Shown here one piece after another: positions 12,297-20,196 of a stretch of 64,000 nucleotides of DNA. A model generated the notes under the pieces. The model was not told the DNA's origin, ran no database searches, and worked only from the letters and a program-made list of their open reading frames with translations. The DNA is from Mariniflexile litorale (lineage in GTDB: Bacteria > Bacteroidota > Bacteroidia > Flavobacteriales > Flavobacteriaceae): positions 629,501 through 693,500 of the forward strand of contig NZ_CP155618.1 in assembly GCF_031128465.2 (NCBI RefSeq), read 5' to 3'. Position 1 is the first letter of the stretch; each line of letters opens with the position of its first letter. The translations under genes were made by a program, and so were the position numbers.

Positions 12297-12647
12297 CTAA
12301 GAATTTGTTGTAATAAACTCATCATTTAATACATCGCTACCATATTTGTTTTCTATTAATTTAAAGAAATCCGATATTTTCACACCTTTATTAAAACATA
12401 TAATTGAAAGTGTCGACAGAGGAATATTATATCCATCTTTATCCATTATTTTTTCAATTATATGATAATTAACACCAAAAAACCTACCATATTCTCTGAT
12501 TGATTTTCCATCATTTAACCATTCTTCATTAATGTACATGCACGTATATTTACATGTATGATATATTTTTTTTTCTAACACTTTTCCTTTCGACATATTA
12601 CAAAGGAAGTAATTAAGCTTTTTATTTTTGAGAGCTATAGCTCTCAA
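12297..12647 (-). CDS. putative small HTH (XRE-like) regulator
   Basis: A 116-aa protein. Residues about 45-100 (GKSIREYGRFFGVNYHIIEK ... IPLSTLSIICFNKGVKISDF) have the layout of a Cro/C1-type helix-turn-helix as found in small flavobacterial XRE regulators. The real start may be a later Met, such as the one in MSKGKVLEKK, which would give about 99 aa. It is divergent from the sigma/dCas12f operon with only about 64 bp between the starts, so it could control that operon. Confidence 0.6.
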   Translation of the reverse strand: MRAIALKNKKLNYFLCNMSKGKVLEKKIYHTCKYTCMYINEEWLNDGKSIREYGRFFGVNYHIIEKIMDKDGYNIPLSTLSIICFNKGVKISDFFKLIENKYGSDVLNDEFITTNS

Positions 12648-12662
12648 TTAAAAGATATATCA

Positions 12663-12670
12663 TATATTTG
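12663..12670 (+). promoter_or_regulatory. possible -7 box (TAnnTTTG) for the sigma/dCas12f operon
   Basis: TATATTTG fits the Bacteroidota -7 consensus TAnnTTTG and lies about 40 bp before the sigma-factor start in the short divergent gap. No clear TTG -33 element at the right spacing was found, so this is a weak prediction. Confidence 0.35.
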
Positions 12671-12711
12671 ATGCAGATTACATGTTTTTGCGATTCTTCA
12701 AATAAAAAATA

Positions 12712-13509
12712 TTGAAGCATTTTATGGTACAGCATGATTTGGAATTATTAAAAAAAGGCGATCCCGCTGCTTTGGTGTATATCCATGCCAAGTACAGCAA
12801 AAGTATCTTTTGGGTAGGTAAGCGCATGATCCATGACCATTTTGTCATAGAATCCTTAGTTCAGGATACGTTTTTAAAATTATGGGAGCATAAAGACAGA
12901 ATCGAAACGCCCAAGCATATCTACTATTTCTTAAGATTTGTGATGAAAAGAGAATGTGTTTCCTACTATGCCAGACCTAAAAATAAGTTTTTTAGGGAAG
13001 TCCATTCGTTAGAGAATTATGAGAATTTCCATGATTATATGGCGGGGTATGATCCTGTAAAAGATGGAGAAACACTAAGCGATCAAGAAGCGGAACAAAA
13101 AGCTTTCGACCATATTAAAAGCGTATTGCCCCTATTGAATGCCGAAAGAAGGCATTTAATAGAACTCTGTTTAACCTATGGTTTTCAATACAAAGCGATT
13201 GCCCAGGTGATGGGGAAGGGCATTACCGAAACCAGTAACGAAATTAAACGCGCTATTGAGGATATCAAAACCATCATTAATCAAGGAAACAGGCTTGAAA
13301 CTATACAAAAGTCCCCTATGGGTATTAAAGTTCATGGTAGTATCACCAAAGAACAAGCAGAAGTGTTAAAGCTGCGATGTGAAAATAAATATTCCTTTAC
13401 GGCTATTGCCAAAACGCTTAATCTAACCGAAAAGGACGTACACCATGAATTTATGATAGCCTATAAACTCCTGCAGCAAAAACATAAACAGCCATTAGAA
13501 CCCGCTTGA
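12712..13509 (+). CDS. ECF-type sigma factor linked to a dead Cas12f-like protein
   Basis: A 265-aa protein. Residues about 8-85 show sigma-70 region 2 character ([19 protein letters not shown], then [20 protein letters not shown] and [16 protein letters not shown]). Residues about 140-185 resemble region 4 ([30 protein letters not shown]). A further 80 residues form a C-terminal extension with a second HTH-like stretch ([28 protein letters not shown]), longer than a standard ECF factor (about 170-200 aa). The stop codon is 1 nt from the start of the Cas12f-like gene, so the two are translationally linked. In recently reported flavobacterial systems such sigma factors are recruited by dCas12f and guide RNA to start transcription. 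Equivalence here is inferred from the gene pair. Confidence 0.88.
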
Positions 13510-13510
13510 T

Positions 13511-14608
13511 ATGGAACCATCAACCCTCAAACTCACCCGAAAGATCCAGTTATGGGTCGACCTCCCGACCCCAGAAGAACGCAAGGAGGTTTTGGACAAA
13601 CTTTACCAATGGCAAAACCGATCTTTTAGAGCGGCCAATCTTATTGTTTCCCATCTGTATGTACAGGAAATGATTAAAGATTTTTTTTATCTTTCAGAAG
13701 GGATAAAGTATAAACTTGCTGATGAAAAAAAAGATAAGGACGGCATCTTGCAACGCTCTCGTATCAATACCACCTATCGCATGGTATCGGATCGCTTTAA
13801 AGGTGAAATCCCTACCAACATATTGTCCAGTTTAAACAATACCCTAATCACAGCTTTTAGAACCAACAGTCCAAAATACTGGAAAGGGGAATGTTCTCTT
13901 AAAAATTTCAAGCGGGATATGGCTTTTCCATTTAGTTTCGAGGGCATCAGCAAATTATCCTATCATGACGAGAAAAAGGCTTTTTGCTTTCGTTTGTTTC
14001 AAATTCCTTTTCGAACGTATTTAGGAAAGGATCATACCGACAAAAAAATACTATTGGAGCGGGTGATAAAAGGAGAGACCAAGCTTTGTACCTCCCGTAT
14101 TAAATTAAAGGACGGCAAAATTTTTTGGCTACCGATATTTGAAATGGAAAAAGAAAAGCATAGCCTCAAACCAGAAGTGATTGCAGAGGCTTCATTGTCC
14201 TTGGAATATCCCCTAGTCGTAAAAATTGGTAAAGACAGGCTTTCTATTGGCACGAAGGAAGAGTTTCTGTATAGAAGATTAGCGATACAAGCAGCCCATA
14301 AAAGGGCACAGATAGGGGCTACCTATTCCAAATCGGGCAAAGGCATCAAAAGGAAACTGAAAGCAATGGACAAATTCAGCCAATCGGAAAGCAATTATGT
14401 ACACCATCGTTTACATGTATACAGCAGGAAGTTGATCGATTTTTGCATCAAACATCAGGCTGGAACGCTCCTTCTGTTAAATCAGGAGGACAAGATAGGC
14501 ATCGCTAAAGAAGATGGATTTGTATTGAGAAACTGGAGCTATTATGAGCTAATGACCAAAATAAAATACAAAGCCGAAAAAGCAGGCATTGAAATTATTG
14601 TAGATTAA
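13511..14608 (+). CDS. nuclease-dead, C-terminally short Cas12f/TnpB-like RNA-guided protein
   Basis: A 365-aa protein. The N-terminal half follows Cas12f/TnpB homologues: an RxxNxxxxH-like helical region near 35-50 and the wedge signature GECSLKNFKRDMAFPF at about 126-141. The RuvC half is degenerate. Where active enzymes have the first Asp (GxDxG) this protein reads VVKIGKDR (Lys near 238). The second-site Glu is replaced in GTLLLLNQED (about 318-327). The chain stops at KAGIEIIVD, before the zinc ribbon and third catalytic Asp. It should therefore bind RNA and DNA without cutting. It is co-directional with, and 1 nt from, a sigma-factor gene and is followed by a structured non-coding stretch. 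An alternative reading is a decaying TnpB, but the tidy loss of all three catalytic residues and the sigma linkage favour exaptation. Confidence 0.85.
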   Translation: MEPSTLKLTRKIQLWVDLPTPEERKEVLDKLYQWQNRSFRAANLIVSHLYVQEMIKDFFYLSEGIKYKLADEKKDKDGILQRSRINTTYRMVSDRFKGEIPTNILSSLNNTLITAFRTNSPKYWKGECSLKNFKRDMAFPFSFEGISKLSYHDEKKAFCFRLFQIPFRTYLGKDHTDKKILLERVIKGETKLCTSRIKLKDGKIFWLPIFEMEKEKHSLKPEVIAEASLSLEYPLVVKIGKDRLSIGTKEEFLYRRLAIQAAHKRAQIGATYSKSGKGIKRKLKAMDKFSQSESNYVHHRLHVYSRKLIDFCIKHQAGTLLLLNQEDKIGIAKEDGFVLRNWSYYELMTKIKYKAEKAGIEIIVD

Positions 14609-14720
14609 CCCATGTGGTTACGAGGGTGCTTGTACACCCGCAAAGTGAGGTGGATGATCGCACTCACTAAATGTGAACAGCATATACAACGCGTGGGCTC
14701 ACTTATTTAATTGATTTTTT
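14609..14720 (+). ncRNA. candidate guide RNA region of the dCas12f-like locus
   Basis: Directly after the stop codon the sequence can fold into a hairpin GGGTG/CACCC (14624-14628 with 14635-14639, loop CTTGTA) and a second stem AGTGAG/CTCACT (14644-14649 with 14663-14668). Then comes ATGTGAACAGCATATACAAC (14671-14690), whose end resembles the ...GCAAC 3' end of known Cas12f repeats. If that is the scaffold end, the guide would begin GCGTGGGCTCACTTATTTAA (14691-14710), just before a T-run at 14715-14720. The scaffold could start inside the protein gene. The boundaries are inferences, and no second repeat unit was found. Confidence 0.45.
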
Positions 14721-14815: not shown

Positions 14816-14953
14816 TTGAAAACCACCAATGAGGCACAACACTTCTTTAAACTAAGCCGAAGCACCTTATACCATTGGTGCAAAACCAAACTCCTTCCCT
14901 ATCCCCTGTTAGAGCAGCGTCTAAACAACAATCCTGATGCCTCGTCTTTTTAA
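14816..14953 (+). CDS. short HTH_17/excisionase-like ORF (possible remnant)
   Basis: A 45-codon frame from a TTG start encodes EAQHFFKLSRSTLYHWCKTK followed by LLPYP. This is the hallmark of the HTH_17/MerR-excisionase fold, in which a normal protein is EAAxxLxVSRxTLYxWxKxGxLP. The segment before the HTH is only a few residues long, so the gene may be truncated or begin elsewhere. It lies between the candidate guide RNA and the converging DUF6266-type gene. Confidence 0.4.
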   Translation: MKTTNEAQHFFKLSRSTLYHWCKTKLLPYPLLEQRLNNNPDASSF

Positions 14954-15010: not shown

Positions 15011-15657
15011 TTAAGCTAGCGTTACCGTTCCCAAATAGGTACTAGTAGCCGCCAGTTTTGCATCGGCCGTTACAAAGGTTGCCCACACATCTACTTGCTG
15101 TGCTGTCCAATAGGCCGGTAAGGGTATTTGCAGCGTTGTTAATTCACGGGTGCCCGCAGGGTTAGCCGTTTCAAACAAATCGAGTGCTTTGCAATACATA
15201 CCACCACAACCAAGCCATCGGTAGCCGAGGCATTACCTTGTCCGCTATTGTCGTTCCAGGTAATTGTAAGGGTTTGGTTTGCATCGAGCGCTACCGCCCC
15301 ATTGGAGAGGCCCCGTAAATCGCCCTTGCCAACAAGTACTTTGGGGTAATCAATGGTATACCCCTCTAAAGGGTCTGGCAAAAGGGCGTATTTAATGTGG
15401 TAGCCCGTTGCTAAATTAAAGCTAGACTTGTCGCCTTGCTGTTTACCAAAATACGCCGAAAGGATGTCCTTTATAGGCGTTAAAAACTTTATAACCGTTG
15501 TAAAGCGGTTACGTTGATCCATTTGCGCTTGTGTAGGTCTATAATTACCTCGTGCCGGTAAACTGCGCATAATATCTTTACCGCGCCAACGTGCACCCAC
15601 AACGTTGCCAACTTTTCCGGAGAAACCTCCAAGGATGCCTTTACTAAATGTTCCCAT
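15011..15657 (-). pseudogene. DUF6266-family protein, frameshifted
   Basis: The first part (from ATG at 15657) reads MGTFSKGILGGFSGKVGNVV, a hallmark of the DUF6266 family, then RWRGKDIMRSLP and RPTQAQMDQRNRF. At about 15195-15200, inside a GGTGGT stretch, the frame changes. The family-like C-terminal half (YCKALDLFETANPAGTREL ... STYLGTVTLA) continues in another frame to 15011. One inserted base would restore a protein of about 215 aa. The family has no known function. The gene converges on the sigma/dCas12f operon and ends at a strong terminator. The break may be a real mutation or a sequence error. Confidence 0.8.
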
Positions 15658-18341: not shown

Positions 18342-20196
18342 ATCGAGTAGACGGGTGACGACTTAAAAGTCGTCACTGCGCCTCTCACACCACCGTACGT
18401 ACGGGTCTCGTATACGGCGGTTCACCAAATTGAAGTTTGCGTATTATTAATGTAATCTAACAAAGGTTTATACCCTTTTCGTTTAAGCCTAGAAACTGTA
18501 ATAGTCGTCTTTAAAATAGGACTTTGAGCGACTGCCCAACCTCCCATTCTGGTGCGACTCCAAGCATAGGCTTGTCCGATTTCTATACCTAATCGAATGA
18601 GATTTTTACGTTTCCTCTCTAGCTTTTTCCAATCGTGCCAAATACAATAGCGTAACCGATTTCTTAACCATTCATCTAGCTTTTTAACTTTTGCATAGAT
18701 GTTAGTTAAGCGGTAATTATTCATCCAGCCTCGACAGACTTGATTAAGCCGATCCAGACGTTCGAATAACGACATGGGTTTGGTTTTCTTGGTGATACTT
18801 TTCAAGTTACGTTTAAACTTTGCCCAACCTTTCTTGGTTACCACTAGTGCATATTGTCCTTTTATACCCTTTTTATAAACGGGTACAAATCCATGCCCAA
18901 GTAACTCAAAGTTTACAGGTCTGCGAATGCCGCTTTTGGCTTTATTTATAGGTAGTTTAAGTCTATCTCTTAAAAAGATAAACAGTTTATTTCCTATAGT
19001 TTTTGCCTCGCTTTTACTTTTTGCGTAAACACTAAAGTCGTCTGCGTAGCGAACATAGCGCAAGCCCATGCTTTTCATTTCTTTGTCCAAAACATCTAAC
19101 ATAATGTTAGATAATAAGGGACTAATGGGACTACCTTGAGGGATCCCTTTTCTGCGCTTTTTGAGTGTTCCATCTATTAAGATGGGCGCTCTTAACCATT
19201 TTCGGATTAATCGCAAGGTGGTTGGACATTTTACTTTGCGGTAAATAAGTTGAAGTAAGATACAGTGGTCTACTTCATCAAAGAACCCTTGTAAATCAAT
19301 ATCTACAATATCTTGGTAACCATCATTGATGTAGCCTTGTGCTTGTAATACTGCTTTTTGGATGTTCTTTTGTGGGCGAAATCCATAACTAACAGGTTCA
19401 AAATCATATTCAAAATGAACCATTAATTGTTGACTTACCGCCTGTTGTAGCCACCTATCTACTACTGTTGGTATTCCTAATAATCGGGTTTTACCCGGTC
19501 CTTTTGGAATGGTTACTCCTAAAATTGAATTTGGCACATAGCTATTTGTGCGAATTGTAGATAATATAAGCGAACGGTTTTCCAATATGTATGCCGAAAG
19601 TGCCGTTGTTTTCATACCATCTACGCCGTTCGCTCCTTTATTGCGCTCCACTTGGCGTGTTGCTTTATAAAGGTTTGTTGCTGATAATACCTGTTCAATC
19701 ATAGATTCAATAATTCGTGTACTCCTGTTGGTTTAAAACTAGGCTAGCTAAGCATCCTAATCGAATTCCAACGTAATTTAATGTTTAGTCCTTCCTTACC
19801 CGTGAGACCTGTACAATTCTTGTTGCACCTCGTTTCCTGTAAGTACTATGACTTCTGCTGACTTCTCTACTTAACCAACTCGTAGTTGTAGAGATCTCCC
19901 CAGGTAATGGCATCTTCTTTCTCTCAATCCCTGCCGTATCTACATATTTACCCTTTTGTTAATCTTAGGGCGTTACAATGATGTGCTTGCTTACCCAAGT
20001 AAATATGCCTCTGTATACGGTTTCTGTTCGTCAGTACCGAGTTTTGTAGTTTCGCTTCCTTCACTCCATGTCTCACGACACACGAGCTTGCGACTTACTA
20101 ATGCTTCAGGACGTTACTCCTGCGCATAAGGGACTTGCACCCTATAGATTAATTATTTACCTTTCGGTAAAGAAAAGATGCCCATGCTGGGCACAC
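18342..20196 (-). mobile_element. group II intron copy 1 (group IIC-attC type), 1855 bp
   Basis: In minus-strand reading the element begins GTGTGCCCAGC (5' consensus GUGYG) and ends CTACTCGAT (3' AY). It carries a reverse transcriptase/maturase ORF. Domain V follows immediately (ACCGCCGTATACGAG...CGTACGTACGGTGGT, about 18389-18422), then a domain VI stem (GTGACGACTTTTAAGTCGTC). The ORF-to-end distance is only 80 nt. It splits the attC R'' core TGCCA|AC on the bottom strand at GT^T, the known target of IIC-attC introns, in the orientation opposite to the cassette genes. Boundaries were fixed by comparing six copies and uninterrupted attC sites. Confidence 0.92.
18422..19702 (-). CDS. group II intron reverse transcriptase/maturase, copy 1
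   Basis: A 426-aa protein with an RT domain (YSGFRP-like box as VSYGFRPQKN, GIPQGSPISPLLSN, catalytic YADD near residue 235) and a C-terminal maturase domain (WMNNYRLTN ... WLRNRLRYCIWHDWKK). There is no HNH endonuclease, as expected for group IIC. It helps splicing and reverse splicing of its host RNA. The stop codon abuts domain V. It is intact and identical in sequence to copies 4 and 5. Confidence 0.95.
   Translation of the reverse strand: MIEQVLSATNLYKATRQVERNKGANGVDGMKTTALSAYILENRSLILSTIRTNSYVPNSILGVTIPKGPGKTRLLGIPTVVDRWLQQAVSQQLMVHFEYDFEPVSYGFRPQKNIQKAVLQAQGYINDGYQDIVDIDLQGFFDEVDHCILLQLIYRKVKCPTTLRLIRKWLRAPILIDGTLKKRRKGIPQGSPISPLLSNIMLDVLDKEMKSMGLRYVRYADDFSVYAKSKSEAKTIGNKLFIFLRDRLKLPINKAKSGIRRPVNFELLGHGFVPVYKKGIKGQYALVVTKKGWAKFKRNLKSITKKTKPMSLFERLDRLNQVCRGWMNNYRLTNIYAKVKKLDEWLRNRLRYCIWHDWKKLERKRKNLIRLGIEIGQAYAWSRTRMGGWAVAQSPILKTTITVSRLKRKGYKPLLDYINNTQTSIW

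What the first reader, a model, noticed from the sequence alone, without database searches (positions are those of the whole stretch)
12712..14608. Sigma factor plus nuclease-dead Cas12f-like protein: candidate RNA-guided transcription system
An ECF-like sigma gene and a Cas12f/TnpB-like gene are 1 nt apart. All three RuvC catalytic positions of the latter appear lost (Lys near 238, Leu/Asn-Gln near 323, chain ends before the third Asp and zinc ribbon). Flavobacterial dCas12f-sigma pairs that recruit RNA polymerase with a guide RNA have recently been described. This locus fits that idea and adds a longer sigma factor and a small divergent HTH gene.
Basis: partly seen in the sequence, partly recalled or inferred. 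Interest (0 to 1): 0.95.

Follow-up and report, generated by a model that had tools for sequence, protein, structure and literature searches.

The report
RNA-guided sigma factor targets RNA switch
A bacterium carries a CRISPR-derived protein that seems unable to cut DNA, paired with a sigma factor (a pairing already known), and its guide RNA matches one arm of a likely stop signal inside an uncatalogued RNA switch in front of nutrient-uptake genes, which suggests that guided transcription starts past that stop.

Summary
The sigma/dead-Cas12f pair is real but is a member of a known kind. Its Cas12f matches the solved 'Nuclease-deactivated Cas12f' (9n9c and others) over its length, and its sigma matches RpoE of 9n9q. 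A sigma homologue lies just upstream of dCas12f in 80 of 80 relatives examined. The sigma is not longer than the known one: it starts at ATG 12724, 261 aa.

A guide RNA lies just downstream (scaffold 14622-14690, guide from 14691). Its best other match in this genome (16 of 18, after a G) lies in a ~170-nt covarying leader RNA upstream of a SusC/SusD operon. That RNA reached no Rfam family. It has two mutually exclusive helices sharing one strand, the downstream helix followed by a T-rich stretch; the guide matches the shared strand.

In 149 sampled family genomes the RNA occurs in 8 of 8 with dCas12f and 25 of 141 without. I infer that guided initiation bypasses an attenuator. In 60 of 80 relatives sigma has the same leader; here its body appears deleted. 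Start sites, binding and ligand are untested.

The parts
12297..12596 (-). divergent small regulator gene (99 aa from ATG 12596); XRE/HTH-like by kinship
   Evidence: ORF; 57% and 51% identical to the divergent genes of L015 and L007; Pfam itself weak for this protein (HTH_48 E 0.071), while 31 of 44 such proteins match HTH_26
12628..12647 (.). perfect 20-bp palindrome TTGAGAGCTATAGCTCTCAA, presumed operator
   Evidence: similar dyad TGAGAGCGTTCGCTCTCA beside the related regulator of L015. Operator role inferred
12663..12670 (+). TATATTTG, presumed -7 box of a housekeeping-type promoter (consensus TANNTTTG recalled)
   Evidence: TANNTTTG found in 50 of 54 upstream regions, 3.8 expected in mononucleotide shuffles, position not enforced
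12687..12723 (+). remnant of the leader RNA element (its first ~35 nt) joined directly to the sigma start; element body and guide site missing
   Evidence: matches the start of the leader at the guide target L086 and in relatives; R1 finds no element in the window and one in the genome, elsewhere
12724..13509 (+). ECF-type sigma factor, 261 aa
13511..14608 (+). nuclease-dead Cas12f (dCas12f), 365 aa
14622..14690 (+). guide RNA scaffold (GAGGGTG...ATACAAC)
   Evidence: 16 predicted pairs in 30 loci, 4 with double changes
14691..14708 (+). guide, GCGTGGGCTCACTTATTT; its 3' limit is not known
   Evidence: position after the conserved scaffold; 16 of 18 match, after G, at C1:3327222-3327239 of the same genome, inside the leader element before susC

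Best explanation
A dCas12f-sigmaE RNA-guided transcription system whose guide copies the 5' arm of the terminator-like helix of a conserved attenuator-type leader RNA. Shown by sequence: a RuvC-dead Cas12f, its sigma, the guide RNA, and a G-preceded guide match inside a covarying two-state leader upstream of susC and susD (DsbD_N and AhpC/TSA genes follow). Inferred: an HTH repressor on a palindrome controls a promoter that makes the leader; in one fold the leader ends in an intrinsic terminator and keeps susCD off, in the other it reads through, perhaps on a ligand. dCas12f and its guide bind the DNA of that 5' arm and place sigmaE-RNA polymerase downstream, so the transcript lacks the arm, cannot form the terminator, and bypasses both the repressor-controlled promoter and the attenuator. 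In 60 of 80 relatives sigma-dCas12f sits behind the same leader and could activate itself. In this genome the leader body is missing there, so the self-loop is probably lost and one susCD operon is the clear target.
For: Proteins: full-length matches to 9n9c_A and 9n9q_C; linked in 80 of 80 relatives. Guide RNA: conserved scaffold. Target: best off-site match, 2 mismatches in 18 where 0.19 hits are expected, and it falls in the only copy of the leader in the genome (R1, E 1.4e-30), 628 nt before susC. In the genomes of 16 chosen relatives the guide pattern has 67 hits, guides included, against 13 for the reversed pattern; of 39 sites inspected 23 lie in the element and 10 of these have SusC within about 700 nt. 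The base before the site is G in 53 of 53 aligned elements. Two exclusive helices: covariation 0.298 against 0.116 shuffled and at most 0.062 slid; terminator-like helix 99.5% paired, 12 double-change cells against 1.5. Loss of the hairpin in late-starting transcripts: -34.7 against about -0.8 kcal/mol from +46 on. dCas12f genomes hold the element in 8 of 8 sampled, 25 of 141 without dCas12f (P 2.8e-6).
Against: No start site, binding or termination is shown. 18 of 79 loci with a recognised scaffold have no guide like the shared strand, among them four Flagellimonas-type loci whose guide has no other match at 3 mismatches in 20. In Chryseobacterium loci the guide has an extra G and resembles the element for only about 11 nt. 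Guide and own sigma-leader site do not vary together. The element is equally conserved in genomes without dCas12f, so its conservation is no evidence of targeting. Without the sigma-leader copies the association is weaker: 6 of 8 against 25 of 141, P 0.001. Transcripts starting nearer than +46 still fold (-10.6 at +18, -5.2 at +30 and +40). Fourteen of 39 inspected sites are neither element nor gRNA, and two of them (L146, L152) also precede weak SusC-like hits. The T stretch is weak (4-5 T in 9) in 5 of 53.
Confidence: 0.6

Rival explanations
1. The guide RNA acts on RNA: being identical to the 5' arm of the terminator-like helix, it pairs with the 3' arm in the nascent leader and prevents termination; dCas12f carries it, and sigma acts elsewhere.
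For: Guide and 5' arm are nearly identical (16 of 17), so pairing with the 3' arm follows.
Against: The solved relative is a DNA-bound complex by its title (9n9m); a G precedes the site in 53 of 53 elements, though that G is also paired in the helix; the obligate sigma partner is unexplained.
Confidence: 0.12
2. dCas12f-guide binding at the leader mainly blocks polymerase coming from the HTH-controlled promoter (a TldR-like repressor); sigma is used for other sites.
For: The site lies between that promoter and susC; nuclease-dead TnpB relatives act as RNA-guided repressors (abstract and passages of PMC13418256).
Against: Conserved linkage to sigma in 80 of 80; one solved entry holds both proteins.
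Confidence: 0.1
3. The conserved segment after the scaffold is mainly a 3' processing or termination signal of the gRNA, or a relic of its origin from the leader, and the likeness to the element has no function.
For: Some guides run into T-rich tails; 18 of 79 loci lack the likeness; no guide/site co-variation.
Against: The segment differs completely in other loci at the same place after the scaffold, as a guide does; the only element of this genome matches 16 of 18.
Confidence: 0.1
4. The element works as DNA (a hairpin-forming repeat or insertion target), not as a leader RNA.
For: In L119, L120 and L122 an IS110-like element ends within its hairpin; copies occur before unrelated genes (L205-L209).
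Against: Several covarying helices with a pseudoknot, a promoter-like box upstream, same orientation as susC in 25 of 37 fetched contexts.
Confidence: 0.07

Closest known systems
dCas12f-sigmaE RNA-guided transcription (PDB 9n9c, 9n9m, 9n9o, 9n9q; papers recalled, none read)
   Same: Cas12f and sigma of the same lengths with full-length matches, genes adjacent, guide RNA downstream, G before the site, target upstream of susCD (the last two recalled as features of the published system).
   Different: Here the sigma operon lacks the leader and self-site that 60 of 80 relatives carry. The guide target is one arm of a two-state leader RNA; whether the papers describe this is not known to me.
TldR, nuclease-dead TnpB repressors (PMC13418256, abstract and passages only)
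   Same: RuvC-dead TnpB/Cas12f relative with an adjacent guide RNA.
   Different: TldR represses and has no sigma partner (recalled); this one is paired with sigma in 80 of 80 relatives.
Cas12f / TnpB nucleases (e.g. 9nzo, 8hr5, 7wju)
   Same: Fold and sequence kinship.
   Different: Catalytic positions and zinc ribbon lost.
Riboswitches and terminator attenuators
   Same: Covarying leader with two exclusive helices, one followed by a T-rich stretch.
   Different: No Rfam family at gathering score in 12 loci and only sub-threshold chance-level matches in L086; no ligand known; the switching strand is also copied by a trans-acting guide.

Membership tests
dCas12f-sigmaE RNA-guided transcription | Cas12f homologue with inactivated RuvC | tested here: met
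   D to S228, E to about L323, no third Asp or zinc ribbon
dCas12f-sigmaE RNA-guided transcription | adjacent sigmaE gene of the matching family | tested here: met
   1 nt apart; 9n9q RpoE E 8e-110; 80 of 80 relatives linked
dCas12f-sigmaE RNA-guided transcription | guide RNA encoded next to dCas12f | tested here: met
   scaffold 14622-14690 with conserved structure; expression not tested
dCas12f-sigmaE RNA-guided transcription | genomic target with 5'-G motif upstream of a gene | tested here: met
   C1:3327222, G-preceded, 628 nt before susC
dCas12f-sigmaE RNA-guided transcription | sigma-dCas12f complex recruits RNA polymerase; start set by distance from the R-loop | not testable with these tools
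   needs biochemistry and 5'-end mapping
TnpB / Cas12f nuclease | intact DED catalytic triad | tested here: not met
CRISPR-Cas type V-F | CRISPR array and adaptation genes beside the effector | not tested
   no array search was made; the ORFs of 9.5-18.5 kb were listed and 8 proteins scanned without a cas1/cas2 match
TldR repressors | acts alone as a repressor without sigma | tested here: not met
   sigma partner in 80 of 80; repression itself not tested
Known Rfam riboswitch or leader family | match above a family's gathering score | tested here: not met
Terminator attenuator (general kind) | two exclusive conserved helices, one followed by T-rich sequence | tested here: met
Terminator attenuator (general kind) | signal-dependent termination | not testable with these tools
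   needs in vitro transcription and a ligand screen

The most novel reading that the evidence does not exclude
An undescribed two-state leader RNA, usually with its own HTH regulator and dyad, controls many SusC/SusD operons of Flavobacteriaceae, and dCas12f-sigmaE is a trans-acting override of it: the guide copies the terminator arm, so guided initiation begins inside the switch and yields transcripts that cannot terminate. One guide can open a regulon of such operons and, in most relatives, the system's own operon.
Probability: 0.5. Interest if true: 0.92.

Novelty: new variant of a known kind. Interest (0 to 1): 0.75.

Why it matters
It would give dCas12f-sigmaE systems a concrete job: overriding a riboswitch-like checkpoint on nutrient-uptake operons. 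It would be a natural case of programmable initiation used to skip a termination signal. It also brings a structured RNA that reached no Rfam family and occurs in 33 of 149 sampled genomes of the family, and makes the question of what these guides are for testable in culturable bacteria.

Tried and rejected
Guide matches with 3 mismatches (L084, L085) were set aside: about 3 are expected by chance, and the genes listed around them are housekeeping-type by my reading.

A self-target in the window was rejected: the only match at 3 mismatches or fewer is the guide, and no element is found in the window.

Of 39 sites inspected, 23 lie in the element, 2 (L132, L134) follow gRNA-scaffold-like ends and 14 show neither.

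No relative of dCas12f was confirmed in viral contigs (close relatives only) and no similar leader in the phage collection. Two plasmids hold it, with no SusC annotated in the stretches shown (that gene table is incomplete).

The predicted dCas12f structure has low confidence (mean pLDDT 56); its fold search served only for entry titles.

The three-sequence alignment meant to show the deletion did not place the 5' side; that inference rests on reading.

Rows dropped: for the leader alignment I used 53 of 79 pattern hits: 5 looked false and 21 were near-duplicates or degenerate (L053, L057 and L080 among them), so percentages of paired cells lean high. For contexts I fetched 37 of the 62 family matches other than those of the dCas12f loci themselves. 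For the HTH scan I gave 43 of 72 ORFs plus the window's. The scan for relatives kept the best 80 of 107.

Literature: seven searches of the open library listed no paper on the dCas12f-sigma system or this leader as far as titles and abstract starts show. I read passages of one paper, PMC13418256.

Full report
Observation. The sigma gene and the Cas12f-like gene are present, 1 nt apart, on the + strand. The sigma has Sigma70 region 2 and region 4 matches. Aligned to the RpoE chain of PDB 9n9q it starts at ATG 12724 and has 261 aa, the length of that chain; the 265-aa form comes from ORF calling. The second protein, 365 aa, matches the 365-aa 'Nuclease-deactivated Cas12f' of 9n9c, 9n9m, 9n9o and 9n9q over residues 3-364 (E 5e-193). 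Two titles seen are 'dCas12f-gRNA complex' and 'dCas12f-gRNA-DNA complex (partial R-Loop)'. In the alignment to the Cas12f chain 9nzo the first RuvC Asp falls on Ser228 and the Glu on about Leu323 (catalytic positions recalled), and the chain stops without a CxxC.

Linkage. A scan of one genome per species gave 107 confirmed relatives, of which the best 80 were kept. A sigma homologue lies just upstream in 80 of 80; in L006 it is cut by the contig end.

Guide RNA. After the dCas12f stop lies GAGGGTGCTTGTACACCC...GTGAGG...ACTCACTAAATG...GCATATACAAC, also in the relatives. In 30 aligned loci 16 pairs are predicted, 4 with double changes. After ...ACAAC the sequences part, as expected of a guide. 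In the window this part begins GCGTGGGCTCACTTATTT at 14691. Of 80 loci the script recognised a scaffold in 79; 61 of these have a guide with at least 8 of its first 10 bases like the leader strand described below and 18 do not (L081 looks like a script miss, compare).

Target in this genome. The genome is one contig of 4.52 Mb. At 3 mismatches or fewer the 18-mer has four hits: itself, one with 2 mismatches at C1:3327222-3327239, and two with 3. About 0.19 hits are expected at 2 or fewer and 3.1 at 3 or fewer for uniform bases. The 2-mismatch site follows a G and lies 628 nt before a TonB-dependent receptor (SusC) gene, followed by SusD, DsbD_N and AhpC/TSA genes on the same strand.

Sites in relatives. 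In the genomes of 16 chosen loci, GNGTGGGCTCTCTTATT at 2 mismatches has 67 hits, guides included, against 13 for the reversed pattern. I fetched 38 off-locus sites and looked at them with L086: 23 of 39 lie in one conserved element (three of these, L119, L120 and L122, score only 36-42 bits because an insertion cuts them). Ten of the 23 have SusC within about 700 nt, three more further on; ten have no SusC hit in the stretch fetched. Two sites outside elements (L146, L152) also precede weak SusC-like hits. A site 147-214 nt before the sigma start is found in 56 of 80 relatives, and the covariance model finds the element in 60 of 80 relatives' loci, none in the window.

The leader RNA. Fifty-three elements, 33 from sigma leaders and 20 from elsewhere, align over 193 columns. 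RNAalifold predicts 33 pairs, 17 with double changes. A structure with a pseudoknot that I named (37 pairs) has 96.4% of cells paired, 183 double-change cells against 52.7 in shuffles, and a covariation score of 0.298 against 0.116 shuffled and at most 0.062 slid; the count of further pair types is not unusual (52 against 50.1). A second helix, columns 104-114 with 165-177, has 99.5% of cells paired and 12 double-change cells against 1.5, and a T-rich stretch follows (6-8 T in 9 nt in 48 of 53, 4-5 in 5). The strand used by both helices is the G plus the guide match. This is the architecture of an attenuator; termination is not shown. No Rfam family is reached. For L086 the downstream hairpin alone folds at -34.7 kcal/mol; pieces beginning 46 or 50 nt after the first target base keep -0.8 and -0.6, those beginning at +18, +30 and +40 keep -10.6, -5.2 and -5.2. 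In the full-length leader the minimum-energy fold is the upstream-arm form.

Independence from dCas12f. With a model built from the alignment the element occurs once in this genome, at the guide site. In 149 genomes of the family it is in 33; dCas12f at E 1e-30 or better is in 8, all among the 33, leaving 25 of 141 (P 2.8e-6). Leaving out copies that belong to sigma leaders, 6 of 8 against 25 of 141 (P 0.001; leader copies judged by contig position). It is also in 15 of 15 further genomes chosen for having dCas12f. Of 37 contexts fetched (of 62 matches), SusC follows in 21 of 27 from genomes without dCas12f, in 4 of 5 from dCas12f genomes, and in 0 of 5 low-scoring copies (74-104 bits) from genomes without dCas12f. 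The six without SusC among the 27 are in one genome, before small ORFs of about 80-120 aa that look alike; two were scanned and had no Pfam match. So the RNA exists without dCas12f, and the guides resemble its switching strand.

Regulator. Of 90 element copies, 72 have a divergent ORF of 55-170 aa starting 54-129 nt upstream. Of 44 such proteins scanned, the window's included, 31 match HTH_26 and 26 HTH_3. In 54 upstream regions TANNTTTG occurs in 50 (3.8 in mononucleotide shuffles, position not enforced) and a dyad with arms of 7 or more in 42 (12.6 in shuffles). The regulators of the window, L015 and L007 are alike (57% and 51%) and so are their dyads; this was not tested systematically.

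The window's peculiarity. Here sigma keeps the regulator gene, a perfect 20-bp dyad, the promoter box and the first ~35 nt of the leader, then goes straight into its ATG. The junction GAAGCATT occurs at the start of the leader in relatives and just before the sigma ATG in L003. L003 appears to be the genome listed as the same genus: contig length 24511 and gene position agree. Deletion between short direct repeats is the simplest reading; it removes attenuator and self-site.

Mechanism and limits. I infer DNA binding at the terminator arm and sigma-driven initiation downstream, giving transcripts unable to terminate. This rests on the solved relatives and on the anatomy. Against it: guides without such likeness, short likeness in Chryseobacterium, no co-variation of guide and self-site, and starts nearer than +46 that still fold. 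Rivals are pairing of the gRNA with the nascent 3' arm, a roadblock, an incidental likeness, or a DNA element.

Literature. Seven searches of the open library listed no paper on the system or the leader. What I say of published dCas12f-sigmaE work beyond the PDB names and titles is recalled, and the leader may be described there.

Noticed in passing
window 18325-40703; L086 562-4928: Five near-identical group II introns (RF02001, a 426-aa reverse transcriptase in the copy at 18422-19702) spaced 3.6-5.6 kb apart, and a sixth diverged one; two more copies lie upstream of the target susCD locus.
   Followed up: partly
L119 56-1330, also L120 and L122: A sequence with a 331-aa ORF that I recognise as IS110-like (no family search made) ends within the hairpin loop of the leader element; the same flank appears at three elements of one genome.
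   Followed up: partly
L025, L032, L034, L035, L076: Two or three tandem guide-RNA scaffolds with different guides downstream of one dCas12f gene; in L132 and L134 scaffold-like ends occur at other places of a genome.
   Followed up: no
L173-L178 and L119: Leader elements before a small (about 80-120 aa) protein family without Pfam match for the two scanned, in one genome followed by a sigma-like fragment at L173.
   Followed up: no
L205-L209: Lower-scoring relatives of the leader element (74-104 bits) before unrelated genes and without the divergent ORF, perhaps a wider RNA class.
   Followed up: no
L247 4501-4662 and L248 4501-4642: The leader element on a Chryseobacterium and a Rhizosphaericola plasmid.
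   Followed up: no
window 14816-14953 and 15139-15657: A 45-aa HTH_17-like ORF after the guide RNA and a DUF6266 gene on the opposite strand.
   Followed up: no
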